Positions 2,584-33,768 of a stretch of 38,832 nucleotides of DNA are shown here, one piece after another. Source of the stretch: Sandaracinaceae bacterium (GTDB taxonomy: Bacteria; Myxococcota_A; Polyangia; Polyangiales; Sandaracinaceae); NCBI GenBank assembly GCA_040218145.1, contig JAVJQK010000079.1, forward strand, positions 1 to 38,832, in the 5' to 3' direction. Each line of letters begins with the position of its first letter. Positions within the stretch are counted from its first letter, which is position 1. The notes below the pieces were generated by a model. It made no database searches and was not told where the DNA came from. It worked only from the letters and a program-made list of their open reading frames with translations. The position numbers were made by a program, and so were the translations under genes.

Positions 2584-4557
2584 TCAACTGACGGATCCGG
2601 GTGAGGGGCCGCTTTCGGCGCCCTCGGACGGGGTCGCCGGCCACGCCGCGCGCACGTGCGCCTCGGCCTGCTCGAGGGGACGTCGCAGTCCTGCGGCCGT
2701 GCCCTCGACCCTGAGCATCTGCGCATCCAGCACCCGGACGAGCTGCGCGCGCTGGGTCTCGAACTGCTCGTTGTGGGCGTCGAGCTCCCCGGCCAGCTCC
2801 GCCCGCTGGCTCTCGAGCTCGTCGCAGCGCTGGCCCGCCCCCGACAGCTCTTCGTCGACCGCGGCCAGCTCCCAGAGCAGCGCGTCGGCCTCCCCCTCGC
2901 TGCCCTCCCCACGCCGGAGCTTCATGCGGGCCGCCTCGCGACGGGCCCGCAGGCTGTTGCGGCGCATGACCAGGGCCTCGAAGACCCCGCGCTCGGCCGA
3001 CAGCCGCCCCGCCACCTGATCCAGCGCGCGACCGAGGGTGCCGCGGAAGTCGCGGGCCCGCTCGTTCAGCGCCTCGACCGCCTCCTGATACGCCTGCGCG
3101 CTCGCGACCGCCTCCTCGAGCTCCTCGAGCGTGCGCGCCGCGAAGGCCATCGCGTGGGCGATCTCCGGCGGCGACTCCTCCAGCGCGTCCAGGTGCTGCG
3201 CGATGGCGTCGTAGCGCTGCCGCCAGCGCGTCGCGCCGAGCAGGCCGAAGCGGTTCCGGACGAGGGGCGTGGGCGTCTCGGGATCGGCCTGCACCGCCTC
3301 GATCGCGGCTGGCGCGATCGGCCCGTCCAGCGCCGGCGACTCGGGGATGGCGAGGCCCGCCGGCGACCCGCCCTTCTCCAGCGACGGATCCTCCAACGAG
3401 AGATCCTCCCGCGGGATGCCCTCCGCGATCGTGTCGCGCGAGCCAGGCAGAGGGACGCCGTACGGGGTCGTGCCCGGTCGAGGCTCGCCGAGGGCCTGCG
3501 CGATGCCGTCGAAGAGCCGCCGCTGATCGCCGTCGACGCTGGTGTCCAGGTGGACGTCCGAGCCCTCGCGCCCCCGGGGCCGCGCGTGCGTGCCCGACTT
3601 CTCGTCGAGCCCACCCCAGCTCGAGTCCGGCCCGAGCCGCTCACGGACCGCGCGCAGCTCGGCGTTGAAGTGGAACGCGTCACGGAAGCGCTCGTCCGGG
3701 TCCTTCGCGAGGCAGCGCAGGATGAACACCTCCATCGCGGGGTGGACGTCGGCGTGCCGCACGCTGGGCTTCACCGGCGCCTCGGTCACGTGCTTGACCA
3801 GCAGATCGCCCGGGTACTCGTAGTCGAAGGGCAGCGCGCCCGTGACCATCTCGTAGAGGATGCACCCCATCGAGTAGATGTCGGCGCGTCCGTCGATGTC
3901 GGTGGACTGGATGTACTCGGGCGCGATGTAGCCGGGCGTGCCGAAGATCTGCTGGCTCCCGGTCAGCGACGGCGCGTCTAGTATTTTTGCGATCCCGAAG
4001 TCGAGCAGCTTGACGTAGTCGCGGCGATCGCGGCGCTGCACGATCAGGATGTTCTCGGGCTTGAGGTCCCGATGGATCACGTTCATCTGGTGGGCGCGGC
4101 TCAGCGCGTTGCCGCACTGCTCGGCGATGTCGAGCGCCCGGAGGGGGATGAAGGGGCCGTCGGCGAGCAGCTTCAGGAGCGGCTCGCCCGGGACGTACTC
4201 CATGACGAGGTAGACGAGCCCGTCCTCGGTCTCGCCGAAGTCGCTGATCTCGACGATGTTCTCGTGGTTGATGCGATTGACCGCGCGCGCCTCGCGCAGG
4301 AAGCGGTCGCGCTGCACCGGGTCGCGCGCCAGGTCACGGCGCAGCGTCTTGATCGCCATCAGCCGATCGATGAGGACGTGGCGCGCGAGATAGACGCTGC
4401 TCATCCCGCCCGAGCCGAGCCGCTGGATGAGCCGGAAGCGCCCGCCGACCGTCTTGCCGATCAACGGATCGAGCACGGTCCGGAGGGGCGTAGCGTCCTT
4501 CGGGCACTGATCCGCGTCGTCCGGATAGAGCTCGGAGCAGCGCGGGCAGACCTTCAT
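2584..4557 (-). CDS. Ser/Thr protein kinase with N-terminal zinc ribbon and C-terminal coiled coil
   Basis: Hanks-type Ser/Thr kinase, 657 residues, predicted cytoplasmic because no membrane segment is visible. A short zinc-ribbon-like element opens the protein (C4, C7, C18, with D21 as a possible fourth ligand). The kinase domain runs about 40-310: glycine loop GSGGMSSV, Lys70 in MAIK, catalytic HRDLKPEN (Asp164), DFG at 187 and the GTPGYIAPE activation segment, so it should be active. After an acidic, Pro-rich linker (about 320-430) comes a long helical, coiled-coil-like region rich in Glu, Ala, Arg and Leu to about 630. Many myxobacterial kinases have a transmembrane helix here instead. 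It is followed by the TPR-PEGA and DUF4215 genes, plausible partners. Substrate and signal are unknown. Confidence 0.93.
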   Translation of the reverse strand: MKVCPRCSELYPDDADQCPKDATPLRTVLDPLIGKTVGGRFRLIQRLGSGGMSSVYLARHVLIDRLMAIKTLRRDLARDPVQRDRFLREARAVNRINHENIVEISDFGETEDGLVYLVMEYVPGEPLLKLLADGPFIPLRALDIAEQCGNALSRAHQMNVIHRDLKPENILIVQRRDRRDYVKLLDFGIAKILDAPSLTGSQQIFGTPGYIAPEYIQSTDIDGRADIYSMGCILYEMVTGALPFDYEYPGDLLVKHVTEAPVKPSVRHADVHPAMEVFILRCLAKDPDERFRDAFHFNAELRAVRERLGPDSSWGGLDEKSGTHARPRGREGSDVHLDTSVDGDQRRLFDGIAQALGEPRPGTTPYGVPLPGSRDTIAEGIPREDLSLEDPSLEKGGSPAGLAIPESPALDGPIAPAAIEAVQADPETPTPLVRNRFGLLGATRWRQRYDAIAQHLDALEESPPEIAHAMAFAARTLEELEEAVASAQAYQEAVEALNERARDFRGTLGRALDQVAGRLSAERGVFEALVMRRNSLRARREAARMKLRRGEGSEGEADALLWELAAVDEELSGAGQRCDELESQRAELAGELDAHNEQFETQRAQLVRVLDAQMLRVEGTAAGLRRPLEQAEAHVRAAWPATPSEGAESGPSPGSVS

Positions 4558-5070: not shown

Positions 5071-5940
5071 TCACGGGGCAACCGGGGGATCGTAGGCGCA
5101 TCGAAAACCGAGATCACTGCGGCTCTCGCTCGTCGGGAGCCAGACCCGGTGGGTGACGCGCATCAGCTCGGGGGGGTGCGCCCAGCTGCCGCCCCGGACG
5201 ACCCGATAGACGTCCGGGTCGGCGCCGAGCCCGACGTCGTCGTCGGTCGGCGCGCTGGCCGTCCACTCCCAGGCGTTGCCCGCCATGTCGAGCACGCCGT
5301 AGCTGCTCGCGCCGTCCGGGAAGCTGCCCACCGGCGAGGCCAGCGCCCAGCCGTCTTCGGCGTCGGGACCCCGCGGCGAGCGGCCGTGGTTGGCGAGCCG
5401 CGAGTTGTAGTGCCGCCCCCACGGGAATCGGTGGCGGGCGGTGCCCCGCGCCGCCCGCTCCCACTCGGCCTCGGTCGGGAGCCGGCCTCCTCGCCACGCG
5501 CAGAAGGCCATCGCCTCGGGGTGGGTGATGCCCGTGACGGGCATGTCGGCCGCGGCCAGCCGCGCGTCCTCGTCCGGGATCCGGCTGGGAGCGCAGCGCC
5601 CCGCGATCACGCAGGCGCGCCACTGGCGGTGCGTGACCTCGGTCCGATCGAGGCCGTAGGCCGGCGTCCAGACCCAGCGGCGCGGCGACTCCTGGATGAA
5701 GCGGCGGGGCGAGCACGCTCCGTCGGTCTCCGGCACGAGCGAGCGGATCGGCACCGGGCGCGAGCGCGCGCAGAGCTCCACGCCGTAGGCGATCTCCCCG
5801 TCGCTCGCGCCCATCACGAAGCGGCCGGGCTCGATCCAGACCACGGGCGAGGCCTCGAGCGTCACGCGCGCCTCTCGCGCCTGCGGGAGGATCCCGAGGC
5901 CCACCGCGCCGAGCGCGAACGCGAGCAGTGCGCGCATCAT
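5071..5940 (-). CDS. SUMF1/formylglycine-generating-enzyme fold protein lacking the catalytic cysteines
   Basis: Exported protein of 289 residues (hydrophobic N-terminus, residues 3-20) with the FGE-sulfatase/SUMF1 fold. Visible family motifs are GRFVMG near 39, DRTEVTHRQW, GGRLPTEAEWERAARG, AGNAWEWT, VVRGGSW and LGFRCA. In genuine formylglycine-generating enzymes two cysteines sit shortly after the GGSW motif; here that stretch (GGSWAHPPELMRVTHR) has none. I therefore do not predict sulfatase maturation. The fold is also used by EgtB- and PvdO-type proteins and by many proteins of unknown role next to bacterial kinases. Two adjacent ATG codons make the start 5940 or 5937. It sits 37 bp after the Lgt-like gene and 40 bp before a lipoprotein. 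Confidence 0.87.
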   Translation of the reverse strand: MMRALLAFALGAVGLGILPQAREARVTLEASPVVWIEPGRFVMGASDGEIAYGVELCARSRPVPIRSLVPETDGACSPRRFIQESPRRWVWTPAYGLDRTEVTHRQWRACVIAGRCAPSRIPDEDARLAAADMPVTGITHPEAMAFCAWRGGRLPTEAEWERAARGTARHRFPWGRHYNSRLANHGRSPRGPDAEDGWALASPVGSFPDGASSYGVLDMAGNAWEWTASAPTDDDVGLGADPDVYRVVRGGSWAHPPELMRVTHRVWLPTSESRSDLGFRCAYDPPVAP

Positions 5941-11988: not shown

Positions 11989-12030
11989 ATCAGACGTTGC
12001 GTGAGGCGCTTCGGGGTCTCCATTCGAGGC

Positions 12031-12897
12031 ATGACGATCACCGTCGCGGGTGTCTCGATCACGCATCCCGAGCGGGTCCTCTTCCCCGCGCAGGGGCTGA
12101 CGAAGGGCGACCTGGCCGCGCACTTCGAGCGGGTGGCGCCCCACATGCTGCCGCACGTCGAGCGGCGCCCCCTCGCGCTGGTACGCTGCCCGCGCGGCGC
12201 GGACAACGCGTGTTTCTTCCAGAAGCACCCGCAGGGCTCCGAGCCCGAGGGCGTGCTCGGCGTCGAGGTGCCCGAGGGAGGCGGGCGCGCGACGCACTTC
12301 GCGGTCGAGGGCGCGCGGGGTCTCGTCGGGATGGCGCAGCTGGGTGTGCTCGAGGTGCACGTGTGGGGCAGCCGCGTCGACGCGGTGGAGCGGCCCGACC
12401 GGTTGGTCTTCGACCTCGACCCGGACGAGGCGCTCTCCTTCGACGCGGTGAAGGACGCCGCGAAGGCGCTGAGGCGGCGCTGCGAGGACGACGGCCTGCG
12501 CCCGTTCGTGATGACGACGGGGGGCAAGGGGCTGCACGTGGTGGCGCCGCTGGAGCCGCGCGCGTCCTTCGATGACGCCCGGGCCTACGCGCGCGAGGTC
12601 GCGGAGGCGCTGGTCGCCGACGCGCCGGAGCGCTTCGTCGCCACCGCGAGCAAGGAGGCGCGCGCCGGGAAGATCTACATCGACACCCTCCGCAACGGGC
12701 TCGGCGCGACGGCCATCGCGCCCTACTCCACCCGCGCGCGACGAGGCGCGCCGGTCGCGACGCCCCTCCGCTGGGACGAGCTGTCGCGGGTCGAGGGCGG
12801 AGACGCGTACGACGCGCGCACCATCGCGAGGCGCCTGGCCGCGCTCGGCTCCGACCCGTGGGAAGGATACGCCGACGCGCGCCGGCGGCTGCCCTGA
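12031..12897 (+). CDS. Stand-alone LigD-type polymerase/primase domain protein
   Basis: Member of the archaeo-eukaryotic primase superfamily corresponding to the polymerase domain of LigD, the end-processing enzyme of bacterial non-homologous end joining. It is 288 residues from the ATG at 12031, which matches the family N-terminus (THPERVLFP about ten residues in); a GTG at 12001 would add ten residues, and neither has a well-spaced ribosome site. Visible motifs are FDLDPDE with catalytic Asp residues, TTGGKGLHV and IYIDTLRN with the third acidic residue, followed by APYSTRARRG. No ligase or phosphoesterase domain is fused and no Ku gene is in the window. It would extend or fill DNA ends with nucleotides. 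Its stop abuts the convergent MopE-like gene with no gap. Confidence 0.9.
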   Translation: MTITVAGVSITHPERVLFPAQGLTKGDLAAHFERVAPHMLPHVERRPLALVRCPRGADNACFFQKHPQGSEPEGVLGVEVPEGGGRATHFAVEGARGLVGMAQLGVLEVHVWGSRVDAVERPDRLVFDLDPDEALSFDAVKDAAKALRRRCEDDGLRPFVMTTGGKGLHVVAPLEPRASFDDARAYAREVAEALVADAPERFVATASKEARAGKIYIDTLRNGLGATAIAPYSTRARRGAPVATPLRWDELSRVEGGDAYDARTIARRLAALGSDPWEGYADARRRLP

Positions 12898-15631: not shown

Positions 15632-17221
15632 ATGGCCTCCGTTGGACCTGGAACCGTCGTCGGCGGGAAGTACGAGCTCGTCGAGCCCATCGGGCAGGGC
15701 GGCATGGCGAGCGTATGGCGCGCGAGGCACACGACCCTCGAGAGCCCCGTGGCCGTGAAGTTCCTCGAGACGTACGGCACGGCGCGCGAGAAGATGGCCA
15801 AGCGCTTCCTCCGCGAAGCGAAGCTCGCCGCGCACCTCAAGCACCGGAACGTCGTGCACATCCTCGACTACGGGATGCTCGACGACGGCCAGCCCTTCAT
15901 GATCATGGAGCTGCTGCGCGGGAAGTCGCTCGGCGACCTGATCGAAGGAGACACGCCGCCCACGCCGCTCGAGATCCTCGAGATCATGGCGCAGGTACTC
16001 GGTGGGCTGGCGGCGGTGCACGACGAGGGGATCGTCCACCGGGACGTGAAGCCGGACAACATCTTCATGGTGAAGGACGCCGACGGCACCTATCCGAAGC
16101 TGCTCGACTTCGGCATCAGCCGGGACACCGAAGGCACCAGCGGCGACACGCGCATGACGAACACGGGCGCGGTGGTCGGCACCCCGCTCTACATGTCGCC
16201 CGAGCAGGCGCGCGGCATGACGGACCTCGATCGGCGCACCGACATCTGGTCGGTCGGCATGATCCTCTACGAGGCGCTGGCGGGCGAGCTGCCGTTCGAG
16301 TCGCCGCACATGGGCGACGTGCTCATCAAGGTGGCCACGGAGGACGTCCCGCCGCTCGGGGTGGCGCGCCCGGATCTGCCCAGGTCGGTCGTCGAGGCGG
16401 TGATGAAGTCGCTCGAGAAGGACCGCGCCGCGCGCTTCGACACCGCTCGGGAGATGCGCGAGGCCCTCCTCGAGGGCGCGGACGAGGTCGCGCGCGGCAT
16501 GATCTCACCGAGCCGATCGCGCCCGAGCCGGCGCCTTCCGTCCCAGCGCTTCGACACGGCGTCGGCGTGGGAGGAGGGCGCCACCGAGGTCGACCCCTCC
16601 GCCCTCGCGACACCGTCCGTCGAGCTCGACGAGCCTCCGGCGCCGCCGCCCCAGCAGACTCGCAAGTGGCCTTTCGCCGTCGCGGGCGGGCTGCTGGGTC
16701 TCGTCCTGCTCTCGGTGCTGGCCGTCTACGGGCTCGGGCTCGAGGTGCGCTTCCAGTCCGCGGCGGCCGACGGAGACCTGGCTGACGGAGACCTGGCCGA
16801 CGGAGACCTGGCGGTGGAGGTGGCCGCGCCTCCCGCCGCGGAAGCGGAGGCCCCCGTCGAGGCCGCGCGGCCCGATGCGCCGCCCGATGAGGCAGACGAG
16901 GAAGAGGCGGCCGAAGCGGGCGAAGCCGAGGAGGCGACCGAGCTCGCGCAGGCGGCCGCCCTCGAGGAGGAGCCTGCAGAAGCCCCGGACGAAGAGCAGG
17001 TCGACTCGCCAGAGGAGAGCGCCGCCGCGTCTGCCGGATCCGAAGGCCGGCGCGCCGCGAGGAGGGGGCGCGGGCGAGCGGCGCGCGGGACCGCGGCCCA
17101 GCGCACCGCGCCGCGGCCCGACTCCACCGAGACCGCGCCGCGACGTGAGACGCGCGAAGAGCCGCCCCCCACCCAGCGTGGCGGGCGCGGACGCGGCTTC
17201 CTGCGCGATCTGGACTACTGA
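15632..17221 (+). CDS. Transmembrane Ser/Thr protein kinase
   Basis: Hanks-type receptor-like kinase, 529 residues. The cytoplasmic kinase domain (about 12-280) has GQGGMASV, Lys43 in VAVK, HRDVKPDN (Asp138), DFG at 159 and GTPLYMSPEQA, so all catalytic elements are present. A basic, Ser-rich juxtamembrane linker leads to one transmembrane helix (about 346-370). The presumed extracytoplasmic part is unusual: three five-residue ADGDL repeats, about 110 residues very rich in Glu and Ala, then an Arg-rich tail (RRAARRGRGRAARG) and FLRDLDY at the end. No sensor domain such as PASTA is seen. No Shine-Dalgarno is apparent before the ATG. It is divergent from the TPR-PEGA/MopE gene pair, a likely functional partner. 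Confidence 0.93.
   Translation: MASVGPGTVVGGKYELVEPIGQGGMASVWRARHTTLESPVAVKFLETYGTAREKMAKRFLREAKLAAHLKHRNVVHILDYGMLDDGQPFMIMELLRGKSLGDLIEGDTPPTPLEILEIMAQVLGGLAAVHDEGIVHRDVKPDNIFMVKDADGTYPKLLDFGISRDTEGTSGDTRMTNTGAVVGTPLYMSPEQARGMTDLDRRTDIWSVGMILYEALAGELPFESPHMGDVLIKVATEDVPPLGVARPDLPRSVVEAVMKSLEKDRAARFDTAREMREALLEGADEVARGMISPSRSRPSRRLPSQRFDTASAWEEGATEVDPSALATPSVELDEPPAPPPQQTRKWPFAVAGGLLGLVLLSVLAVYGLGLEVRFQSAAADGDLADGDLADGDLAVEVAAPPAAEAEAPVEAARPDAPPDEADEEEAAEAGEAEEATELAQAAALEEEPAEAPDEEQVDSPEESAAASAGSEGRRAARRGRGRAARGTAAQRTAPRPDSTETAPRRETREEPPPTQRGGRGRGFLRDLDY
16769..16813 (+). repeat. Three 15-bp tandem repeats inside the kinase gene
   Basis: Three copies of GACGGAGACCTGGCN, nearly identical at the DNA level, encode the ADGDL repeats just after the transmembrane helix. 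Such in-frame repeats can vary in number by slippage; here they sit in a non-catalytic linker. Confidence 0.85.
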
Positions 17222-24064: not shown

Positions 24065-27000
24065 TCACGCGAGCAGATCGATCAGCAGCGCCATCTCGCC
24101 GCCCTGACCGAAGCGCGCCGCGTCTCGATGCAGGGTCCCGAGGACCCGCGCCGCGAGCAGCCTGACCAGCTCGTCCGACCGCGGGTCGTCCGCGGCGAGC
24201 GCGCGGGCGACCTCCTGGACCGCGCGGTGGCGCCCCGCCATCTGCACGACGTGTCCGAGCGCCTCGGCGAGCGGGCGCTTCTTGCGGCCGTCCACGAAGA
24301 CGGCGCCGACCGCGGCGACCTCCATCGCCGCGAAGCGCGCCTCGAGCGCGGCCTCGAGCGGCGTCGACGCGCGCTTGGGCGGCGCCGGGGTAGGACGGCC
24401 TTCTTCTCCCGCGGGCGCCGTCGACGGAACCACGACCGGCGCCGGGGGCGGCTCCGGAGGCGCGTCGCCGAGCACCTGCTCGCGCAACCAGAGCGACCAG
24501 GGCAGCGCGTGGTCCCCGAGGAACGCCGCGACGAGGCGCGCGGTCTCGCCGCCGTCGTCGACGAACAAGGGCCGCGGCGTGGCGGCGTCCTCCGCCGCGT
24601 CGACCTCTGCCGGCGTGCAGCGGATCACGCGCTGACCGGTTCCCAAGTGCTCCACCAGCGACGCGAGGGTCGTGGTGGGTGGGCGAAAGCACGCGAGCAT
24701 CACGGACGGGAACCCCTCCGCGTCCAGATCGACCCCGCGCGCCGCGCCGCCGAGCACGTGCCCGAGCATGCGCTCGTCTCCGCGCTCCGCGACGGCCCGG
24801 GCCGCCTTCGCGATCGACGCCGCGTAGAGCGCGGTCACGAGCGACCCGACGCGGTGGGCGTCGAGGATCCCGGCCGCCCAGAGCTGGCCGCAGAGCGGCA
24901 GGGATCGGCCGCGGCCGTCCTCCGCGAACAGGGTGTGCTCGCCGCGGCCGTCGCGCAGCGTGATCGTCGTCGCCGGCGCCGACCCCGGCTCGCTCTCCTC
25001 GAGCCAGATCACGCCCTCGACGGCAGGGAAGCCCTCGAGCCCGAGCGAGGGAAGGAGGCCCGCGTGGACACGAAGAGACAGCGAGACACCTTGCGGCTCC
25101 GCGATGAGCTGCGCCAGCGCCGCGTCCACGCGCTCGCGAAGGTGACCTCGGAGCAGCGCGAGCTGGACGCCGCTCTCGCTCGGACCGTCGTGGGTGCGGT
25201 TGACCTCGAGCTCGGGGTGATCGATGCGGGCGAGCCAGGGCCAGCCCGTCCCGTCCGCGTGGGTCCCCATCGGCAGCATCGCGCGAGAGAGGTGCAGCCC
25301 GCGCAGGTGCTCGAAGCCGGGGCGGAGCACCGCGACGAGGCCGTGCGCGGCGCCGAAGCCCTCCACGCGCTCGATGACCGCCGCGCCGAGCGCCTCCGCC
25401 TCGGTGAGCTCCAGCGACTCGAGCCGCGGCCGGGCCTGGTTCTCGCGTGCGACGGCGTCGAGCTGGAGCTCCTCGGTGCCGTCCACGACAGGCACGAAGC
25501 TCTCCAGTCGCGCCGCCTCGGCCGACGTGATCTGGAGCACGACGCGCCCCGGCTCGAGCGGCTCGGCGCGGATCGGGTAGGGGGTGAACCAGACCTCGCC
25601 GAAGCGCGCGGTTTGCTCCTTCAGCTCGTCCGGGGTCACCCATCGCTCGCTCGTGGTGAGGAAGAGCGGCACGTCGTTCAGCCGCTCGTAGTGCAGCCCG
25701 TCCCCGGCGAGGCAGCTGTCGCGCAGCGCCTCGCGCACCCACGGCGGCAGCTGATCGCGCGGGACCTCGTCCACCACGTGACGGATCACGTGACTGACGA
25801 TGAGCTTCAGGGCGTCCATGAGCTGGTTGCGCGCGGTCGTCTGGAGGGACGCCATGCCCGCCTCGTCGACGAGCGGAGAGGTCATCGCCACGACGACGCT
25901 GGGGATCACGTTGGCCTCGATGGACCGGGTGTGCTCGCCGCGATCGAAGAGCAACAGGCGGCTCGGAGCCTCCCGCACCAGGGCCACCTCGCCCACGCCG
26001 ATGACCTCGGCGCGAGGATCGGTGACATTCGCGAGCAACACCTCGAGCGGGACGCAGAAGCGCGGGTCGGGCGGCGCGATGACCGCAGGCCGGCGCTCGA
26101 TCCCACGCGCCACCCGGCGCTTCGACTGGAGCTTCGCGAGCGCCCCGCCCACGTCTCGTGTGCTCCCCTTTCCCCAGAGCGCGCCGAGCAGCTCGCGCAG
26201 CGCGCCGCGCTTCTCTTCCTGCGCGGGCAAGGCGATCACCGGGGCGTCGAGGGCGCTCCGCCGCTCCCCTTCGTCCGGCTCGAGCCAGTGGCCCTCCCAG
26301 GCCCCGACGCGGAGATCGCCGCTCCCCCCCGCCGCGTCCGCGAGCGACGTTCGCCCGCCTTGCACGGTGCGCCACGCGGGGACCTCTCCCAGGAGTGTCC
26401 GGAGCTTCTGATCCGCGGAGGCCTTCGACCCCTTCGCCACCCACGCGCGGAGGAGCGCGAAGGTGCGCGGCGCGTCCGCCAACGAGGTCGGCTCGGACTC
26501 GGCGATCGCCCTCAGCAGCACGCGCGCCCCGCGCCACGAGACGCGGCGCACCATCCTCTCGGCCGCGTCGGTCAGACCTCGCAGCTCCTCGTCCGCGCAG
26601 TCTTCGTCGAGATCGATCGCGAGCCAGACCGGCGGCCCGTCCGGGACCCGGAGCTCCACGAACGAGCGGCCCTCGATCTGCGCGTGGATGAGGGTGCCTC
26701 CATCCTCGATGGACGCGGGCGCGGCGACGGCGGAACGATACGTGCGACCCTTCACGGGCACGCGGGGTCGCGCCCACGTCACCGTCGGATCGCTCTGTCG
26801 CTGACGGCGGTGGAGCTCGAGCGCCCGCGCACGCCGCGCGCGACGACGGAGGCCCTCGAGCTGGTCGCGCCCGTCCGCGAACGCGCGCCCCGTCCAGCGC
26901 TCGAGCGCCTTCACCATCGACGACGAGGCGAGCACGGGGTGCCAGCCGTCGAGCTCGACCCCGGCCGCCTCGCCGAGCGGCACGAAGGGGATGGGGTCGG

Positions 27001-29668
27001 CGCGAAACGCCTCCATGATCTGGTCGACGCTGTGCCGCTCGGGCGCTCCGAGGCGCTCGAAGAGGGGGACGCCCGAGAGCGCGCGGAGGCGTGACGACGT
27101 GAGCACTCGCTCGAGCGAGCCCTCGGCGTGCTGCATCAGATCGAAGAGCGCGTGGCGGGCGCCGTGGGCGTCGAAGGGATCCTCTGGACCGACGGCGAGC
27201 GCGGGCGGCGGCTTGCCAGTGAGCGCGTCGACGAACGCGCGCGCGAGCTCTCCCTCCCAGCGCGCGAGCGGGTAGCCCTCCGCGCGCGGCGACGCGACGC
27301 TGCGCCAGCCCTCCCCCGGCACCACCAGGCCATCCTCCACCACGACCCGACACGGGGTGGTCGTCTCGTCGACGACCCTCGTCTCGAGCTCGTGCCCCCA
27401 GTGCCGGACGACCAGCTCGCGCCGCTCGCCCCCCCAGACCACCGCGGCCCGGAGGTGCGGACCCTCGATCTCGAGCCCCACCCCGTGCGGAGGCGTCTCT
27501 CTTCGCGCGAGCCCGGTCGGCTCCGGCTCGGTTCTCTCGCGGATGAGCACCGGTCGGTAGTCCACCATCGGGCCGAAGAGGGACAGCGCGTCGTCGCGCT
27601 CTTCTCGGTCGAGCACCAGGACGAGCCGGCCCGAGGGCGCGGGCCCGCCCGGCGCGGCGCCGAAGCACACGCCGAGTGGCCTCGGGGTGCGCAGCACGTC
27701 GCGCGCGGTGTGGAGCGAGCCGTCCACCGTCGGCCAGATCGCGGCGCGCAGCAGAGGGCTGTTCGAGCTCGCGAGCTGCGCGCGCAGCGCGTCCGGGTCT
27801 CGTCCATCCGCGAGGAGCTGCGCCGCCAGGTAGACGCCACGCCGGAGGACGCCCGCAACGAGATGCGCAGCCTCCGGCGCGTCGATCCACTCGACCCGGG
27901 CCTCGCTCCGATCGCCCTGCTTGCGCTTGCCCGAGACGCGGAGCGCGAGCCCCTCGCAGGCGACGACGGCCGCGGCGTCGAGGGCGCGACACATGGACAC
28001 GTAGCCGGGGTCACGGCGAACGCTGCGAAAGTCGACGTGGGGGACGAGGCCAGCGCGCGTGACGACGGCCTCGTAGAGGAGGCTCCGGTCCGGCTGCAGC
28101 AGCTCGATCTCGCGCCCGCCGAGGCGAACGCTCACCGCGCCCGCGCGCGCTCGCCGCGGATCGAGGAGCGCCAGCTCGCCCTCGAGGCCGGGCACGTCGA
28201 ACAGCTCCGTCGGCGCGATGCTCTTCAGAGAGCGGCCTGGCGCCTTCAGCGGCACCGCGAGGAGTTGCACGTCCGACGCCTGCAGGGTGTTGGGCCGCGG
28301 CGCCTCGTTCTGGAAGCGCGCGCGCGCCTTGCGATGCTTTCGAGCAAGCTTCGCGAGCTCCGACGCCCGCGCCGGCACCCAGTCGCCGAGCAGCGCGCGC
28401 GCGTGATCTCCCGGCGGCACCCACAGCACGTGGCCGAGCCAGGGCTCGAGCTCCGCCTCGTACGGGGCGTCGGCGAAGCTCACGCGCTCATCGCCCTCGC
28501 CCAGGGGAAAGCTCGCGGGGCTCCGAGGCCGGCCCAGCGCGTCGCGCAGGAGCGGCAGCGCGAGGAGCGGCGCGAGGGCCGAGGCCGCGTCCTCCTCCTG
28601 TTCGACGCCGCGCAGCGCGGCGCGCCAGAGTCGCCCGCTGGCCCGCGCCGCCAGGAGCTGCACAGCCGCGGCGCGGAGGCGCTCCCGCTGCGACTCGGTC
28701 CAGCTGCGCGAGGGCCCCTCCTCGAGCTCGCTGGCCAGACGCGCCACGACCGCGGGGAGCAGCTCTCGCCCGCGTTCGAGCGCGTCACGGACGGGTGGAT
28801 CGGTGAGCCGAACGGCGGAGCGCGACGCGTTCGTGGGCAGCCGGTTCGCGTCGAGATAGAGGCGGAGCGGCAACCCGGTGAGCTCGGGGTGGAAGCCGGT
28901 CAGCGGCCACGTGTAGCGCACGAGCAGCACGCCGAGCTCCGCCAGCTCGAGGCTCGCGGGCCCTCGCGCCGAGGCTGGGTCGAGCACGGCCAGGAACCCA
29001 TCGAGCCCCTCCCCGAGCGAGACGCGGAGCAGGTCGCGGTGCGAGCGCTCCCGCCCGAGCGTCGCGCCCCCCACCGCGATCGGCACCGCGAGGTCGTCGC
29101 AGCAGCGCCTCGCCACCGCGAGCTCCGCCGGCTCGCCGATCCCGATCAGGATCGGCACCGCGTTCCACTGCGGCAGCCGCTTGAGGTGCACCACGACGCC
29201 GGGTCCCAGCGCCTCGGGTGGGGGCACGGTCGGCTCGGGCGTCAGGCGGCGCAGCCCCTCCGCCACGCCCTCCTCCACCTTCAGCAGACCGGGCGTGAAC
29301 CGAACGCGCTGCGCGTCCTCGCCCATGCTGATCACGTCGAGCCAGCGCGGCTCCATGCCGAGCGCCGTGTTGACGCCCGTCGCGAGGAGGCGGAGGTGGC
29401 GATGGTCGGCCTTGGGCGCCGGATCCACCAGCTCGTCGAAGAGCGTGGCGACGCGCGCGGCCGGGATCGGAGGCCCTCGCCAGGCCACCCGCACGTCGTC
29501 GCCGTCCCCCGTCACCGCGATGCGCTCGGCGCCCGCGAGGACGGCCGCGCGGATCACCTCGAGGACCCACATCGTCGGATCGGGCAGCTGGTAGTCCCGC
29601 AGCTTGTCCACCGCGCGCGCCGCGTCCACGCGGAGGCGGCCCGCGGCCACGCGCGTCCCCGCGCTCAC
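24065..29668 (-). CDS. Very large protein of unknown function with degenerate Hsp90-like N-terminal domain
   Basis: Predicted cytoplasmic protein of 1867 residues without signal peptide or membrane segment. I use the GTG start at 29668 because it overlaps the preceding stop by four bases (GTGA) and has GGGGAGGGG just upstream; an ATG 13 codons earlier is less likely. Residues about 15-160 resemble the Hsp90/GHKL fold (DPTMWVLEVIRAAVLAGAERI, then VRVAWRGPPI), but the Mg-binding Asn of the ExxxN motif is Ala and the DxGxG motif is absent, so ATP hydrolysis is not expected. The remaining 1700 residues match no domain I can name; a Pro-rich linker (about 1715-1750) precedes a helical C-terminal part. 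Codon use is like the neighbours. It must work with the coupled ATPase upstream. Confidence 0.85.
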   Translation of the reverse strand: MSAGTRVAAGRLRVDAARAVDKLRDYQLPDPTMWVLEVIRAAVLAGAERIAVTGDGDDVRVAWRGPPIPAARVATLFDELVDPAPKADHRHLRLLATGVNTALGMEPRWLDVISMGEDAQRVRFTPGLLKVEEGVAEGLRRLTPEPTVPPPEALGPGVVVHLKRLPQWNAVPILIGIGEPAELAVARRCCDDLAVPIAVGGATLGRERSHRDLLRVSLGEGLDGFLAVLDPASARGPASLELAELGVLLVRYTWPLTGFHPELTGLPLRLYLDANRLPTNASRSAVRLTDPPVRDALERGRELLPAVVARLASELEEGPSRSWTESQRERLRAAAVQLLAARASGRLWRAALRGVEQEEDAASALAPLLALPLLRDALGRPRSPASFPLGEGDERVSFADAPYEAELEPWLGHVLWVPPGDHARALLGDWVPARASELAKLARKHRKARARFQNEAPRPNTLQASDVQLLAVPLKAPGRSLKSIAPTELFDVPGLEGELALLDPRRARAGAVSVRLGGREIELLQPDRSLLYEAVVTRAGLVPHVDFRSVRRDPGYVSMCRALDAAAVVACEGLALRVSGKRKQGDRSEARVEWIDAPEAAHLVAGVLRRGVYLAAQLLADGRDPDALRAQLASSNSPLLRAAIWPTVDGSLHTARDVLRTPRPLGVCFGAAPGGPAPSGRLVLVLDREERDDALSLFGPMVDYRPVLIRERTEPEPTGLARRETPPHGVGLEIEGPHLRAAVVWGGERRELVVRHWGHELETRVVDETTTPCRVVVEDGLVVPGEGWRSVASPRAEGYPLARWEGELARAFVDALTGKPPPALAVGPEDPFDAHGARHALFDLMQHAEGSLERVLTSSRLRALSGVPLFERLGAPERHSVDQIMEAFRADPIPFVPLGEAAGVELDGWHPVLASSSMVKALERWTGRAFADGRDQLEGLRRRARRARALELHRRQRQSDPTVTWARPRVPVKGRTYRSAVAAPASIEDGGTLIHAQIEGRSFVELRVPDGPPVWLAIDLDEDCADEELRGLTDAAERMVRRVSWRGARVLLRAIAESEPTSLADAPRTFALLRAWVAKGSKASADQKLRTLLGEVPAWRTVQGGRTSLADAAGGSGDLRVGAWEGHWLEPDEGERRSALDAPVIALPAQEEKRGALRELLGALWGKGSTRDVGGALAKLQSKRRVARGIERRPAVIAPPDPRFCVPLEVLLANVTDPRAEVIGVGEVALVREAPSRLLLFDRGEHTRSIEANVIPSVVVAMTSPLVDEAGMASLQTTARNQLMDALKLIVSHVIRHVVDEVPRDQLPPWVREALRDSCLAGDGLHYERLNDVPLFLTTSERWVTPDELKEQTARFGEVWFTPYPIRAEPLEPGRVVLQITSAEAARLESFVPVVDGTEELQLDAVARENQARPRLESLELTEAEALGAAVIERVEGFGAAHGLVAVLRPGFEHLRGLHLSRAMLPMGTHADGTGWPWLARIDHPELEVNRTHDGPSESGVQLALLRGHLRERVDAALAQLIAEPQGVSLSLRVHAGLLPSLGLEGFPAVEGVIWLEESEPGSAPATTITLRDGRGEHTLFAEDGRGRSLPLCGQLWAAGILDAHRVGSLVTALYAASIAKAARAVAERGDERMLGHVLGGAARGVDLDAEGFPSVMLACFRPPTTTLASLVEHLGTGQRVIRCTPAEVDAAEDAATPRPLFVDDGGETARLVAAFLGDHALPWSLWLREQVLGDAPPEPPPAPVVVPSTAPAGEEGRPTPAPPKRASTPLEAALEARFAAMEVAAVGAVFVDGRKKRPLAEALGHVVQMAGRHRAVQEVARALAADDPRSDELVRLLAARVLGTLHRDAARFGQGGEMALLIDLLA

Positions 29669-31293
29669 GGCCCCTCCCCTACGCGCTCGATGGCGGCCTC
29701 GAGCCACTCGTCGTCGCGGTCGTCGTCGAGGAGGCCCCGGTCGAGGAGGATGCCCCGCGCGAGGACCGCGGCCGCGAGCGACGGACGCGACGTCGCCGCC
29801 GCCCGCGCGGCGTACACGAGGGGATCCGTGACGTCGAGCCAGAGCGGGGGGCGACGGATGAGCGCGAAGATGTTCTCCGTCGCCTCTTCGCGCGTCAGCA
29901 CGCGCGGCGGGGCGTCGACGCCGGACACGAGCCGAGCGCCCGACAGCGCGCCTTCGAGCGTCACCAGGCGAATCTCCGAAGGGGCGCGGTGGACCTCGCC
30001 GAGCAGCTCGCGGACGCCGTCGAGGAGCGCCAGGTCACTCCCGCTCTCGATCACGGGCGAGGCGAGGGTGAGCGCCGCCTCCACCGACGGCGGCGCGGCC
30101 CCGAGGAGCTCGGCGATCGCGGCCAGGTAGCGCGCCGGGTCGGCGGCCACCGAGAGATCGAGGATCGCCACCTGCGCCGCGCTCGCGGCCTCGGAGAGCG
30201 GCGACGGTGCGGTGGCTGCGAAGACCGCGTCCCGCCGCCGCAGCCGCTGGACGCTCTCCGACGCGCCGCTCATCAGCGCCAGCTCGATCCGCTCGGGGTC
30301 GAGCGCGAGGCCCGCGGCGAGCGCCGTGGCGAGCACGCGATCGGGCGCGACGCTCGTCGGCAGCGCCTCGTGCACCGCACGGGTCAGGTCGCGATCGATC
30401 ACGCGCCGCGCGAGCTTCATGGCGTTGGCGTAGTGCGCGTCGCGCCTGACGCTGTCGCGGCTGAGCGTGTGCTCGAGGCGGCCGTCCTGGATCGACACGC
30501 GCACGTGGTCCCCCAGCACCGCCTCGGTCGTCTCGTGCAGGAGCAGCCCACGATTGAAGAACGCGAGCTGGGGCGACCCATGCTCGATGACGCCGGCCAC
30601 CACCGTCGTGCCCCCCTCCTCCACCCGCACCGAGATGCTGGCCTCGACCGAGAGCGGCGTGTCGACGCGCGCCTCGCGGAGCGGCTCCCCTTCTCCCACC
30701 AGGTGCGCCACGAAGTGGATGGGGAGCTCCGCGTGGCGACACCACTTCCGGAGCGCGCGGAGGCTGCCGTCGACGAACCGATCGACCTCGTCCCGCGCCA
30801 GAGGCACGTGCAGCGTCACGGTGGTCCCGCTCGACCCGCCCCCGGGCGCCTGGAACAGCTCGTAGCTCTGGTCGCTCCGCAGCTCGAGCGTCCACAGGTC
30901 CGTGTCCCCGGTGGTCGTGCGCACGACGACCTTCTCGGGCACCAGCGCGAGCACCGACACGAAGCCGATGCCGAACTTCCCGATCTTGCCCTCCTGCCCC
31001 TCCTTGCCCGAGCGGAAGAGCACGGTCAGCTGGTTCTCGAGCACCTGGCGGCTCATGCCGCAGCCGTCGTCGCGGACCGAGACGACCATCGTGCCGGCCC
31101 CGGGCTCGGCGCTCGCCTCCCAGCTCGCGCCGATCGAGACGCGCGTCGCGCCCGCGTCGATGGCGTTCTGGACGAGCTCCCGATAGAAGGCCAGCGGATC
31201 GGCGAACTGCTGGATCAGCGCGTCGACGAGGCCGTCGTCCCCCCCGGCGACGCTCGGCGCGGTAGCCCGTCCGCTGCGATAGGGCGACGCCAC
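29665..31293 (-). CDS. Hsp90-like (GHKL) ATPase
   Basis: Protein of 542 residues with an intact Hsp90-type ATP-binding domain in its first 200 residues: RELVQNAIDAGAT with catalytic Glu39 and Mg-binding Asn43, VRDDGCGM (Asp75), GKIGKFGIGF (about 102-111) and GTTVTLHVP (about 156). The next 150 residues continue the Hsp90-like pattern (a middle-domain-like segment near VEHTLSRD-type sequence), while the last 200 residues are unlike HtpG, which is about 620 residues long. So it is an Hsp90-family relative, not the housekeeping chaperone. GTG start. The stop overlaps the start of the giant gene by four bases, which implies a stoichiometric partnership. It lies 42 bp after the AKR fusion gene. 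A chaperone, remodeler or defence role is inference. Confidence 0.88.
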   Translation of the reverse strand: MASPYRSGRATAPSVAGGDDGLVDALIQQFADPLAFYRELVQNAIDAGATRVSIGASWEASAEPGAGTMVVSVRDDGCGMSRQVLENQLTVLFRSGKEGQEGKIGKFGIGFVSVLALVPEKVVVRTTTGDTDLWTLELRSDQSYELFQAPGGGSSGTTVTLHVPLARDEVDRFVDGSLRALRKWCRHAELPIHFVAHLVGEGEPLREARVDTPLSVEASISVRVEEGGTTVVAGVIEHGSPQLAFFNRGLLLHETTEAVLGDHVRVSIQDGRLEHTLSRDSVRRDAHYANAMKLARRVIDRDLTRAVHEALPTSVAPDRVLATALAAGLALDPERIELALMSGASESVQRLRRRDAVFAATAPSPLSEAASAAQVAILDLSVAADPARYLAAIAELLGAAPPSVEAALTLASPVIESGSDLALLDGVRELLGEVHRAPSEIRLVTLEGALSGARLVSGVDAPPRVLTREEATENIFALIRRPPLWLDVTDPLVYAARAAATSRPSLAAAVLARGILLDRGLLDDDRDDEWLEAAIERVGEGP

Positions 31294-31335: not shown

Positions 31336-33108
31336 TCAGCCGGGGTCGAAGTAGGCGTCTGCGTCCACGTAGGGCACGCCGAGGCGGCTCGCGATCCCTC
31401 GGTCCGCGGCCGAGGTGCCCACCCAGAGGCAGCGCGCCGGGTCGAGCGCGTGCTCGAGGATCAACGCCACCCCGAGGCCGGGCAGGGGCTTGCGGCACCA
31501 GCAGATCGGCGGCCCGGCGGCGTGGCGACAGAAGCGCGCGTCCAGGTCTCGCCCGAGCCCCGCCTCGAGGCGCGCGACGCGCCGCGCGACCGCCTCCGGG
31601 CTCGCCTTCGGGGCCCAGCCCGTGGCGCAGAGCGTCCGGGGCTCCTCTCGCAGCCGCGCCGCGCGCTCCGGCGCGAGCGTCACCGCCTCGCCCTCGAACG
31701 AGGCGAAGCTCTCGACGCTGACGATCACCGCCTCGCCGTCGCCACCCCACGGCGCGCGCTCGAACGCGCGCCGCTCCAGCGCCGAGAAGCCCTCGTCCTC
31801 GGTGGGTGGCTCGAACGCGGCGCGATAGCGGAGCTGCACGCGGGGGTCGAAGAGGTTCGGATCGTCCTTGCCGGCCCGCTTCATCTCGTCCGGCTCGAGG
31901 AGCCGGCCCGTCCGCTCGATCATGCGCACGCACGCGTTGACCTGCGCGTCCTCGAGCGCCGTGTCGACGAGCACGCAGCGCACGGGCAGATCGTGCTTCC
32001 AGGCGATCTCGAGGACCTGGTCGCGCAGCGCGCGGGTCGCGTAGGTGTTGTCGAGCACGACGCGGCGGGGGCCCGTGTTCGTGAGCGTGCTCAGGAGCGC
32101 GCCCAGCCGACCGTGCAGCGCCTTCAGCGTCCCCCCGGTCGCGTCGCGGTTGAGCCGCGCGTAGCCCGCCTCGACCAGCGCTCGGGCGTGCGTGCTCTTG
32201 CCGGCGCCCGGGATCCCCATCAGCAAGACGACTTCATCCTGTCCGCCGTCCCTCGGCGGAGTGGGCGGGCACCTGAGCCGCGCGCCGAGCGGAAACCGGG
32301 CGTCGAGCGCCTCGCGCGCCCCGTCGTCGAGGGAGAGCGGCGCCAGCGCGTCCCGCGCGGTCTCGGGCCGCGTGCAGCCGGGCAGCGGCGTGGCGCCGAG
32401 GTCGCGGAGCCACGCGAGCGTCATCGCCCACGGCGAGACGCCGCGCGCCTCGGCCAGCGCTCCGAGCGCGCGGTCCCGGCCGATCTTCGCCGCCCTCTTC
32501 GGCCCGCCGAGGGGCGAGTGCGCGAGCAGCGCGATGCCCTCGTCGAGGCAGTAGCGCGGCACGCCTCCGCGGAGGCCGCTCTCCTCGAAGGGCGACAGCC
32601 CGATCTGCACCGCGTCGACGTCCATGTGCGCGCGCGCCTCCCGGAGCTGCGCGACGCCCACGTTGCAGAGACCCAGCCGCGCCACGAGGCCATCGGCCTT
32701 CAGCTTCGCGAGCGCGCGGCACGTCGTCTTCCAGCTGACGCGCGGGTCGGGGGCGTGCAGCAGGTAGAGATCGATCGTCTCGACCCCGAGCGCCTCGAGC
32801 GAGCCTTCGCACGCCTGACGGATCGCCTTGGCCCTTCCGTCCGGCACCCACCGTCCACCCGGGCGTGTCAGGCCGCCCTTCGTCGCGACGCGCGGTCGCG
32901 GCCCGCTCCACGCGTCGAGGGCCCGCACCAGCCACCGCTCGTTGATCCCGAACACGCCGTCGTCGGGCCCGTAGACGTTGGCCGTGTCGAGCAAGGTCAC
33001 CCCCGCCTCGAGCGCCGCGCCGACCACCTCGTGCGCCGCCGCTTCGGTCTCGAAGCGCATGCAGCCGAGGGCGCGCTCGACGCGTCCGAGCGGGGCTCCG
33101 GGCGTCAT
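31336..33108 (-). CDS. Aldo-keto reductase / polynucleotide kinase-like / degenerate HAD fusion
   Basis: Three-domain protein of 590 residues. Residues 1-275 are an aldo-keto reductase with the full tetrad: Asp41 and Tyr46 (LLDTANVYG), Lys77 (VATKGG) and His118 (YLLHAPDP). Residues about 290-430 are a P-loop kinase of the polynucleotide kinase type: GIPGAGKST (298-306), LNRD and LDNTYAT, as in the kinase half of PNKP and T4 Pnk. Residues about 458-590 resemble a GmhB/PNKP-type HAD phosphatase: Zn-loop ligands Cys527, His529, Cys536, Cys538 and the CRKPLPG Lys are kept, but the nucleophile Asp is missing (VIVSVES) and the last acidic motif reads GTSAADRG, so phosphatase activity is doubtful. 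Starts three bases after the upstream stop. A nucleic acid repair link is plausible. Confidence 0.9.
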   Translation of the reverse strand: MTPGAPLGRVERALGCMRFETEAAAHEVVGAALEAGVTLLDTANVYGPDDGVFGINERWLVRALDAWSGPRPRVATKGGLTRPGGRWVPDGRAKAIRQACEGSLEALGVETIDLYLLHAPDPRVSWKTTCRALAKLKADGLVARLGLCNVGVAQLREARAHMDVDAVQIGLSPFEESGLRGGVPRYCLDEGIALLAHSPLGGPKRAAKIGRDRALGALAEARGVSPWAMTLAWLRDLGATPLPGCTRPETARDALAPLSLDDGAREALDARFPLGARLRCPPTPPRDGGQDEVVLLMGIPGAGKSTHARALVEAGYARLNRDATGGTLKALHGRLGALLSTLTNTGPRRVVLDNTYATRALRDQVLEIAWKHDLPVRCVLVDTALEDAQVNACVRMIERTGRLLEPDEMKRAGKDDPNLFDPRVQLRYRAAFEPPTEDEGFSALERRAFERAPWGGDGEAVIVSVESFASFEGEAVTLAPERAARLREEPRTLCATGWAPKASPEAVARRVARLEAGLGRDLDARFCRHAAGPPICWCRKPLPGLGVALILEHALDPARCLWVGTSAADRGIASRLGVPYVDADAYFDPG

Positions 33109-33111
33109 CGC

Positions 33112-33768
33112 TCAGATGGGGGTGCGGCCGCGGGCGATGGCGCGCTCGAGGGCGCGGCGGTCGAAGCCGGTGATGATCTCGCCGCGGAAGTCGATGACCG
33201 GGATCCCGTTCGTCTGCACGCCCGCCGCGCGCGCCGCCTCGAGCATCGCCTGCCGCGCGCCGGGGTCTCGCTCGATGTCTCGCTCCACGAACGGCACGTT
33301 GCGCTCGCGCAGGAACGCCTCGGTGGAGCGACAGGCCGAGCACCACGAGGCGCCGTAGACGATGACGTCGGCGTCTCCCTCGGCGGCCTCGCCCTCCGAC
33401 GGCTCCGGGGTGGTGGCCGCCGCGAGGTGCGCCTCGAGCTCGTCCCGCGGCATGGCGCGCACGGCGTAGCGGCCGTCCTCGCCCGCCTCGCGGAGATCCG
33501 CCACCCACACCTGTGACGGGTCGAGGCGCTCCTCCGGGGCGAGATCGAGGTCGTCGACCCGCACCAGCTCGCGCCGCGCCTCCGGGATCTCGTCGCGGCT
33601 CGCGGCGGTGTGCTGCCCCTCCTCGTCGAACCACACGAGCAGCAGCCCGCTCGCGTCACCGCGCACCTCGAAGGGGGCCTGCGTCGCCCCCTCGACGGCG
33701 GCTCCGCTCGCCTCGTTGCAGCCGAGCAGGAGGACGAAGGCCAGTGCCACGCGAGTCATGCCGCGCAT
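33112..33768 (-). CDS. Lipoprotein with C-terminal glutaredoxin-like domain
   Basis: Predicted 218-residue exported protein with a signal peptide ending LLGC (Cys17), probably a lipoprotein. Residues about 30-115 form a small domain with strands (GLLLVWFDEEGQHT) of unknown type. After an acidic linker, residues about 133-215 are glutaredoxin/thioredoxin-like: VIVYGASWCSACRSTEAFL with redox motif CSAC, VPFVERDIERDP, the cis-Pro in GIPVIDFRGEIITGFD. It would act in thiol-disulfide exchange outside the cytoplasm, which fits the number of Cys-rich exported proteins here. The start is 33768 or the ATG three codons later (33759); neither has a clear ribosome site. Three bases separate it from the AKR fusion gene. 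Confidence 0.84.
   Translation of the reverse strand: MRGMTRVALAFVLLLGCNEASGAAVEGATQAPFEVRGDASGLLLVWFDEEGQHTAASRDEIPEARRELVRVDDLDLAPEERLDPSQVWVADLREAGEDGRYAVRAMPRDELEAHLAAATTPEPSEGEAAEGDADVIVYGASWCSACRSTEAFLRERNVPFVERDIERDPGARQAMLEAARAAGVQTNGIPVIDFRGEIITGFDRRALERAIARGRTPI

What the first reader, a model, noticed from the sequence alone, without database searches (positions are those of the whole stretch)
31336..33108. Three-domain fusion: aldo-keto reductase, polynucleotide kinase and a HAD domain lacking its nucleophile
The C-terminal two thirds mirror PNKP-type kinase/phosphatase order, but the phosphatase keeps the Zn loop while losing the catalytic Asp and altering motif IV. Fusion to a fully motif-complete aldo-keto reductase is odd and could link reduction of a damaged or aldehyde-bearing end to phosphorylation.
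Basis: partly seen in the sequence, partly recalled or inferred. Interest (0 to 1): 0.65.

Follow-up and report, generated by a model that had tools for sequence, protein, structure and literature searches.

The report
Aldehyde reductase fused to polynucleotide kinase
A myxobacterial gene encodes a real, widely shared protein that joins an aldehyde-reducing enzyme to a PNKP-type DNA/RNA 5'-end kinase and a phosphatase domain that lost its catalytic residues but kept its zinc site, a combination that could repair aldehyde-capped strand breaks.

Summary
The minus-strand ORF 31336-33108 (590 aa) is one intact gene. It carries an aldo-keto reductase (AKR) with a complete D41-Y46-K77-H118 tetrad, a kinase closest to mammalian PNKP (model: Z 18.9, 34% identity over 144 residues), and a GmhB/PNK3P-type HAD fold (Z 15.5 to GmhB). 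In the HAD the nucleophile position is Ser464 and motif IV is Gly-Thr, while the C-x-H...C-x-C zinc ligands remain.

It is not an artefact. I classified 95 relatives. The AKR-kinase-HAD fusion is present in 65, all Myxococcota. Of the 95, 54 have an intact HAD, 38 are degenerate and 3 mixed. On a tree that leaves out HAD columns, intact (28) and non-intact (35) fusions are separated by one branch: a single old loss, after which the zinc ligands survived in 41 of 41. Stand-alone intact versions occur in bacteria and in large viral contigs, some beside RNA ligases.

Best mechanism (inferred): the AKR reduces a strand-end aldehyde, such as the 5'-aldehyde left by C5' oxidation, to 5'-OH; the kinase makes it 5'-phosphate; the pseudo-phosphatase is a zinc-held end-binding module. 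A 2012 review calls the fate of such ends "essentially unknown"; the fusion makes it testable.

The parts
31336..33108 (-). whole ORF, AKR - PNKP-type kinase - degenerate HAD, 590 aa
   Evidence: single full-length copy in the genome
32275..33108 (-). AKR domain, residues 1-278; tetrad D41, Y46, K77, H118
   Evidence: PF00248 E 6.9e-40; tetrad in 64 of 65 fused relatives
31759..32256 (-). PNKP-type 5'-OH kinase domain, residues 285-450; Walker A 298-306, NRD 320-322, DNT 353-355, R395
   Evidence: TIGR01663; PDB profile search 1yj5 E 2.7e-28; model Z 18.9 to 3zvn
31339..31758 (-). degenerate HAD (pseudo-3'-phosphatase), residues 451-590; S464 at the nucleophile position, W498, Zn ligands C527/H529/C536/C538, G564-T565
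   Evidence: fold Z 15.5 to GmhB 2gmw over 134 residues

Best explanation
This is a member of an old Myxococcota family of polynucleotide end-processing enzymes. Shown by sequence and model: an aldo-keto reductase fused once to a PNKP-like kinase-phosphatase whose domain order is kinase then HAD; in the branch holding this gene the phosphatase lost its catalytic residues once and kept its zinc site. Inferred mechanism: the AKR, with NAD(P)H, reduces an aldehyde at a broken strand end (most simply the nucleoside 5'-aldehyde left by C5' oxidation, e.g. by enediyne antibiotics or radiation) to a 5'-hydroxyl, and the kinase phosphorylates that hydroxyl so that a ligase can act. In the intact branch the HAD removes the accompanying 3'-phosphate, so both dirty ends of one break are cleaned by one protein. 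In this gene's branch the zinc-held pseudo-phosphatase is an end-binding or allosteric module and another enzyme (here perhaps LigD) removes the 3'-phosphate.
For: Kinase: closest solved relatives are mammalian PNKP, with the kinase motifs conserved. HAD of relatives: PF08645 PNK3P matched above its cut-off in 6 of 8 proteins scanned, all 6 with an intact HAD, and the intact profile aligns with the mouse PNKP phosphatase. AKR tetrad in 64 of 65 fusions. One fusion event: 63 fused AKRs against 8 stand-alone AKRs, support 95. One loss: 28 intact against 35 not, 1 change, SH-aLRT 100, HAD columns left out. Zn ligands in 41 of 41 degenerate or mixed. HAD omega below 1 in all four degenerate pairs computed (0.30-0.42), though higher than in the seven intact pairs (0.10-0.24). 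Nucleic-acid setting of stand-alone relatives in viral contigs: RNA_ligase genes near L135 and L138; SMC/AAA-like and metallophosphoesterase genes near L143 and L144, a PDDEXK_1 gene near L143. Chemistry from passages: neocarzinostatin breaks carry 3'-phosphate and 5'-aldehyde, and the laboratory reduces the aldehyde to 5'-OH with NaBH4 before PNKP treatment (PMC3950721); resolution of 5'-aldehyde double-strand-break ends is called 'essentially unknown' (PMC3825254).
Against: No enzymatic result; nothing in the sequence names the AKR substrate. AKRs usually take small carbonyls (recalled) and the barrel pocket would have to accept a DNA or RNA end; the full-length model is poor in the AKR (pLDDT mostly under 65), so this could not be examined. 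No conserved DNA-repair neighbour in the bacterial loci. The RNA ligase neighbours in viral contigs point as much to RNA as to DNA. If 3'-phosphate removal were central, losing the HAD would be odd; the in-genome substitute (LigD_N found) is a guess.
Confidence: 0.4

Rival explanations
1. The AKR is a redox or NADPH sensor that regulates the kinase rather than acting on the same substrate (as recalled for the Kv-beta subunits, AKRs that sense pyridine nucleotide).
For: AKRs used as cofactor sensors are known (recalled); TIGR01293 Kv_beta gives a weak hit (E 5e-4), as any AKR might; a glutaredoxin-like gene lies 3 nt upstream in this species.
Against: The catalytic tetrad is conserved in 64 of 65 fusions, which suits catalysis; the glutaredoxin neighbour is not conserved.
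Confidence: 0.2
2. Small-molecule pathway: the AKR reduces a sugar or nucleoside aldehyde and the kinase phosphorylates the alcohol; the HAD once removed a phosphate from an intermediate.
For: GmhB and HisB, the nearest solved HADs, act on small phosphates (recalled); AKRs favour small carbonyls (recalled).
Against: The kinase matches PNKP better than any small-molecule kinase; intact HADs match PNK3P; stand-alone relatives sit by RNA ligases in viral contigs; no conserved metabolic neighbour.
Confidence: 0.2
3. The AKR reduces other strand aldehydes: abasic sites, 5'-dRP or 3'-unsaturated aldehydes, turning cross-linking lesions into inert alcohols, while the kinase handles separate 5'-OH ends.
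For: These lesions carry aldehydes (PMC12564780, passages).
Against: They do not create a substrate for the fused kinase, so the fusion would be less economical; a literature search for 'abasic site' with 'aldo-keto reductase' showed no such enzyme in its 10 listed titles of 14.
Confidence: 0.15
4. Artefact: frameshift or misassembly joining two genes, or a misaligned HAD.
For: None found.
Against: Same fusion in 65 of 95 relatives; two assemblies of the species agree; no stops; register fixed by intermediates and by the modelled strand 460-464.
Confidence: 0.01

Closest known systems
Mammalian PNKP (TIGR01663; PDB 1yj5, 3zvn)
   Same: Kinase domain (34% identity, Z 18.9); the HAD of intact relatives matches PNK3P and aligns to the mouse phosphatase domain
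   Different: Domain order reversed (kinase then phosphatase); GmhB-type zinc loop; AKR at the N terminus; this gene's phosphatase lacks the nucleophile
T4 Pnkp (PDB 1ltq, 1rc8, 2ia5)
   Same: Kinase-then-HAD order; alignment of the model runs across both domains (model 6-301 on 1rc8, Z 13.4, but rmsd 12.3, so the domains are placed differently)
   Different: About 15% identity; no AKR; the T4 HAD is catalytic (recalled)
GmhB / histidinol-phosphate-phosphatase HADs (2gmw, 3l8h, 2fpr)
   Same: HAD fold (2gmw Z 15.5, rmsd 2.5, 134 residues) and, by recall, the C-x-H...C-x-C zinc loop
   Different: Catalytic Asp and motif IV lost in this gene; fused to a kinase and an AKR
Aldo-keto reductases (nearest solved by sequence: AKR13B2, 8hnq)
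   Same: PF00248, complete tetrad
   Different: Fused to a polynucleotide kinase; fused AKRs form one clade apart from the 8 stand-alone AKRs used
LigD-Ku bacterial end joining
   Same: Multi-domain bacterial break repair; the same genome has Ku (two hits) and LigD_N
   Different: No domain shared with this protein

Membership tests
PNKP-type polynucleotide kinase domain | PNKP-like P-loop kinase with Walker A, NRD, DNT motifs and the C-terminal F-E-P-P-T..E-G-F segment | tested here: met
PNKP (bifunctional 5'-kinase/3'-phosphatase) | Catalytic HAD phosphatase with D-x-D-G-T nucleophile and motif IV Asp | tested here: not met
   S464/E466 and G564-T565 in this gene; no PNK3P hit for this protein up to E 1 nor in the genome up to E 0.001; met in 54 of 95 relatives
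PNKP (mammalian architecture) | Phosphatase before kinase | tested here: not met
   kinase 285-450, HAD 451-590; in the mouse chain the phosphatase aligns at 23-124 and the kinase at 225-364
PNKP | Transfers phosphate from ATP to 5'-OH DNA or RNA | not testable with these tools
   needs an assay
Aldo-keto reductase superfamily | PF00248 barrel with D-Y-K-H tetrad (tetrad recalled) | tested here: met
   E 6.9e-40; D41 Y46 K77 H118
Aldo-keto reductase superfamily | NAD(P)H-dependent carbonyl reduction | not testable with these tools
   needs an assay
GmhB-like HAD fold with zinc loop | HAD fold and C-x-H...C-x-C ligands | tested here: met
   Z 15.5 to 2gmw; ligands C527 H529 C536 C538 by sequence; zinc itself not tested
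GmhB-like HAD phosphatase | Catalytic Asp nucleophile | tested here: not met
   Ser464

The most novel reading that the evidence does not exclude
The family is a dedicated one-protein repair enzyme for C5'-oxidised strand breaks: the AKR turns the 5'-aldehyde into 5'-OH, the kinase makes 5'-phosphate, and (in the intact branch) the HAD removes the 3'-phosphate, so the two ends left by an enediyne-type cut are both made ligatable. In the degenerate branch the old phosphatase became a zinc-bound reader of the 3' side.
Probability: 0.28. Interest if true: 0.87.

Novelty: new variant of a known kind. Interest (0 to 1): 0.64.

Why it matters
Nucleoside 5'-aldehydes are the major product of neocarzinostatin (PMC12564780, section 2.5); one review calls their resolution at double-strand breaks 'essentially unknown' (PMC3825254, passage) and the other lists only non-specific strand-displacement repair in vitro. 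A natural fusion of an aldehyde reductase to a PNKP kinase, kept in two old sister subfamilies, is a ready candidate enzyme for a direct test. The pseudo-phosphatase branch is also a clean case of an enzyme domain losing catalysis once while its metal site was kept in every copy seen.

Tried and rejected
Frameshift or misassembly: rejected. Misalignment of the HAD: the automatic alignment A3 did put the nucleophile column in the wrong register for this protein, and A3 was the alignment under the better model; but A5, the larger MAFFT alignments, the intermediates and the modelled strand 460-464 agree on Ser464. Operon partner: glutaredoxin, HATPase and 1880-aa neighbours are not next to the gene in other genomes; no recurrent neighbour beyond close relatives. 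Plasmids: no match. Defence system: no PADLOC match for this protein. dN/dS between the two assemblies of the species was uninformative (14 nucleotide differences), so wider pairs were used. L040 (Anaerolineae) looked like a junction match but lies in an unrelated gene, by its sequence a tryptophan synthase beta chain (name recalled), i.e. chance. Full-length model: AKR part too poor to use. A literature match for an AKR-PNK fusion was sought and none was seen in the listings; this covers only the held open-access library and those terms. Distribution outside Myxococcota was not properly searched: the only whole-collection genome scan used peptides of this one sequence and finds close relatives only. 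The N-terminal extension of many members gave no Pfam match in the four such proteins scanned (L104, L107, L121, L114).

Rows dropped: of 18 viral loci, 13 were classified; L141 was left out because it gave the same identity and E-value as L136, and L147-L150 match only the HAD part. From the fused rows, L162 (partial frame) and L010 (near copy of the window) were left out of the tree (63 of 65). In one search L010, L159 (broken frame, no readable kinase) and L117 were left out (38 of 41 non-intact). L117 is cut by a contig end and is an apparently separate partial loss, so 'one loss' is for the 63 fused rows only. The order, class and phylum searches overlap in genomes. Two kinase-HAD neighbour sets were scanned by choice: 10 proteins from L135, L138, L143, L144 out of nine viral loci listed.

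Full report
WHAT IS THERE. The ORF lies exactly at 31336-33108 on the minus strand, ATG to stop, 590 aa. Pfam finds an aldo-keto reductase over residues 14-261 (E 6.9e-40) and an AAA_33 kinase over 293-389. NCBIfam adds the PNK-3'Pase model over the kinase (E 3.5e-15) and weak GmhB and histidinol-phosphatase matches over the end. The gene is the only full-length copy in its 11-Mb genome; the other 11 of 12 matches cover the AKR part only. A second assembly of the same species, a named Sandaracinaceae MAG (locus L039), has it in one frame with 8 amino-acid differences. Sandaracinaceae is in Myxococcota, Polyangiales.

MOTIFS. The AKR tetrad is D41, Y46, K77, H118 (positions; tetrad identity recalled). 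The kinase has G-I-P-G-A-G-K-S-T 298-306, N-R-D 320-322, D-N-T 353-355 and the PNKP-like segment ending in E439-G-F. In the HAD, the strand A-V-I-V-S (460-464) stands where relatives have A-L-L-L-D, so the nucleophile position is Ser464 and the +2 Asp is Glu466; the D-G-T loop is shortened; S-N-Q is replaced by G-W498; C527, H529, C536, C538 and R539-K540-P541 remain; motif IV G-D is G564-T565. Both predicted models make 460-464 a strand, which supports this register.

STRUCTURE. A model of residues 285-590, from an alignment with 13 viral relatives, has mean pLDDT 89.4 and pTM 0.84. Against the PDB the kinase half matches mouse PNKP first (Foldseek; VIA-align Z 18.9, rmsd 1.7, 144 residues, 34% identity). 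The HAD half matches E. coli GmhB (2gmw, Z 15.5, rmsd 2.5, 134 residues). T4 Pnkp aligns over both domains but with rmsd above 12, so the domains are arranged differently. The full-length model is poor in the AKR and was not used.

RELATIVES. Searching residues 285-590, or a profile of them, gave matches in 47 of 183 genomes of the order at E 0.001, including weak partial hits, 58 of 317 of the class at E 1e-20 and 35 of 377 of the phylum at E 1e-20. I read 82 loci (genomes and two phage records) and 13 viral contig loci and classified all 95. 65 are AKR fusions: 28 intact, 35 degenerate, 2 mixed. 10 are intact without AKR (8 bacterial, 2 phage), 13 are viral and intact, 6 are cut by a contig end and one has a broken frame. 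In total 54 are intact, 38 degenerate and 3 mixed (both Asp of D-x-D kept but motif IV lost). The AKR tetrad is complete in 64 of 65 fusions; the exception is a partial frame. Of eight relatives scanned with Pfam, six match PNK3P above its cut-off; the two that do not are one degenerate protein and one intact protein without zinc ligands.

ONE FUSION, ONE LOSS. AKRs of the fusions form one side of a branch against 8 stand-alone AKRs (7 from this genome, one from another; support 95). In a tree of AKR plus kinase columns only, 28 intact and 35 non-intact fusions are split by one branch (SH-aLRT 100, one change). A kinase-only tree with more kinds of relatives is less resolved: it groups 27 non-intact rows (89/82) and leaves four other degenerate rows unplaced, with L117 elsewhere as a separate partial loss. 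Three genomes (G185, G242, G380) carry one intact and one degenerate copy, so the two are old sister subfamilies, not recent decay.

WHAT THE DEGENERATE BRANCH KEPT. Zinc ligands C-x-H...C-x-C are present in 38 of 38 degenerate and 3 of 3 mixed, and in 49 of 54 intact ones. So some catalytically intact relatives do without the zinc site, yet the catalytically dead branch never lost it in this sample. In 38 of the 41 non-intact rows examined closely, the Asn of S-N-Q is Trp in 35, and the loop reads G-P-P-x-C-W-C in most; 53 of 54 intact rows have Asn. HAD omega is 0.30-0.42 in four degenerate pairs against 0.10-0.24 in seven intact pairs: still constrained, but less so. The sequences are related, so these counts are not independent events.

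SETTING. The gene starts 3 nt after a glutaredoxin-like gene and ends 42 nt before a HATPase (sacsin-like) gene, itself overlapping an 1880-aa ORF, but these neighbours occur beside it only in this species, and no neighbour recurs beyond close relatives. Stand-alone intact relatives in viral contigs sit near RNA_ligase genes (L135, L138), a further PNKP-type kinase-HAD gene (L138), SMC/AAA-like and metallophosphoesterase genes (L143, L144) and a PDDEXK_1 gene (L143) (ten neighbour proteins, chosen by eye). The genome has no PNK3P match but has Ku, LigD_N and a LigD primase-polymerase in this same window.

MECHANISM. Shown: domains, motifs, families, history. Inferred: the reaction. PNKP-type kinases need a 5'-OH (recalled). 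In the laboratory the neocarzinostatin 5'-aldehyde is reduced with NaBH4 to 5'-OH and the DNA is later treated with PNKP (PMC3950721, passages); the same paper says most such breaks carry 3'-phosphate and 5'-aldehyde. An AKR fused to a 5'-kinase and, in the intact branch, to a 3'-phosphatase would do the same steps enzymatically. [quoted passage not shown] a 2025 review lists strand displacement by pol beta with FEN1 in vitro, not specific to this lesion (PMC12564780, section 2.5 read). Why this branch gave up the phosphatase is open; the LigD phosphoesterase domain could stand in (function recalled). RNA ends, other aldehydes, a redox-sensor AKR and a small-molecule pathway remain live rivals.

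VERDICT. The fusion is real, old and, so far as the searches here reach, found only in Myxococcota; other phyla were hardly searched. It is a new variant of the PNKP kind, with two subfamilies, one bifunctional by motif and one with a zinc-keeping pseudo-phosphatase. Searches of the held literature (listings only) showed no description of it.

Noticed in passing
12001-12897 (+): Stand-alone LigD primase-polymerase (PF21686 E 9.5e-88); a similar gene lies 6-8 kb from the AKR-PNK gene in G180 and G181 (L072, L073) but 18 kb away here, perhaps by chance.
   Followed up: partly
24065-31293 (-): HATPase/sacsin-like protein (542 aa, weak PADLOC TmtA match E 1e-7) overlapping an 1880-aa ORF with no Pfam or NCBIfam match; a possible two-gene system of its own, not linked to the fusion elsewhere.
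   Followed up: partly
33112-33768 (-): Glutaredoxin-like protein with an extra N-terminal part, 3 nt upstream of the fusion gene; not conserved beside it.
   Followed up: partly
L104, L105, L107, L110, L111, L114, L118, L121, L123 and others, N-terminal ~160 aa of the ORF: A conserved extra N-terminal stretch ('PPLSNAELSxGLxL...VGRFLS...') before the AKR in many intact members; no Pfam match in the four scanned.
   Followed up: partly
L121, L123, L143, L145, L146: Catalytically intact HADs that have lost the zinc ligands, the mirror image of the degenerate branch.
   Followed up: no
L143-L146: Viral stand-alone kinase-HAD genes that fall among the AKR-fused bacterial kinases on the kinase tree, as if they had lost the AKR or been a donor.
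   Followed up: no
L138:4995-9081: Two different kinase-HAD (PNKP-type) genes and an RNA ligase within about 4 kb in one large viral contig.
   Followed up: partly
5071-5940 (-): FGE-sulfatase domain protein; protein kinases at 2584-4557 and 15632-17221 nearby.
   Followed up: no
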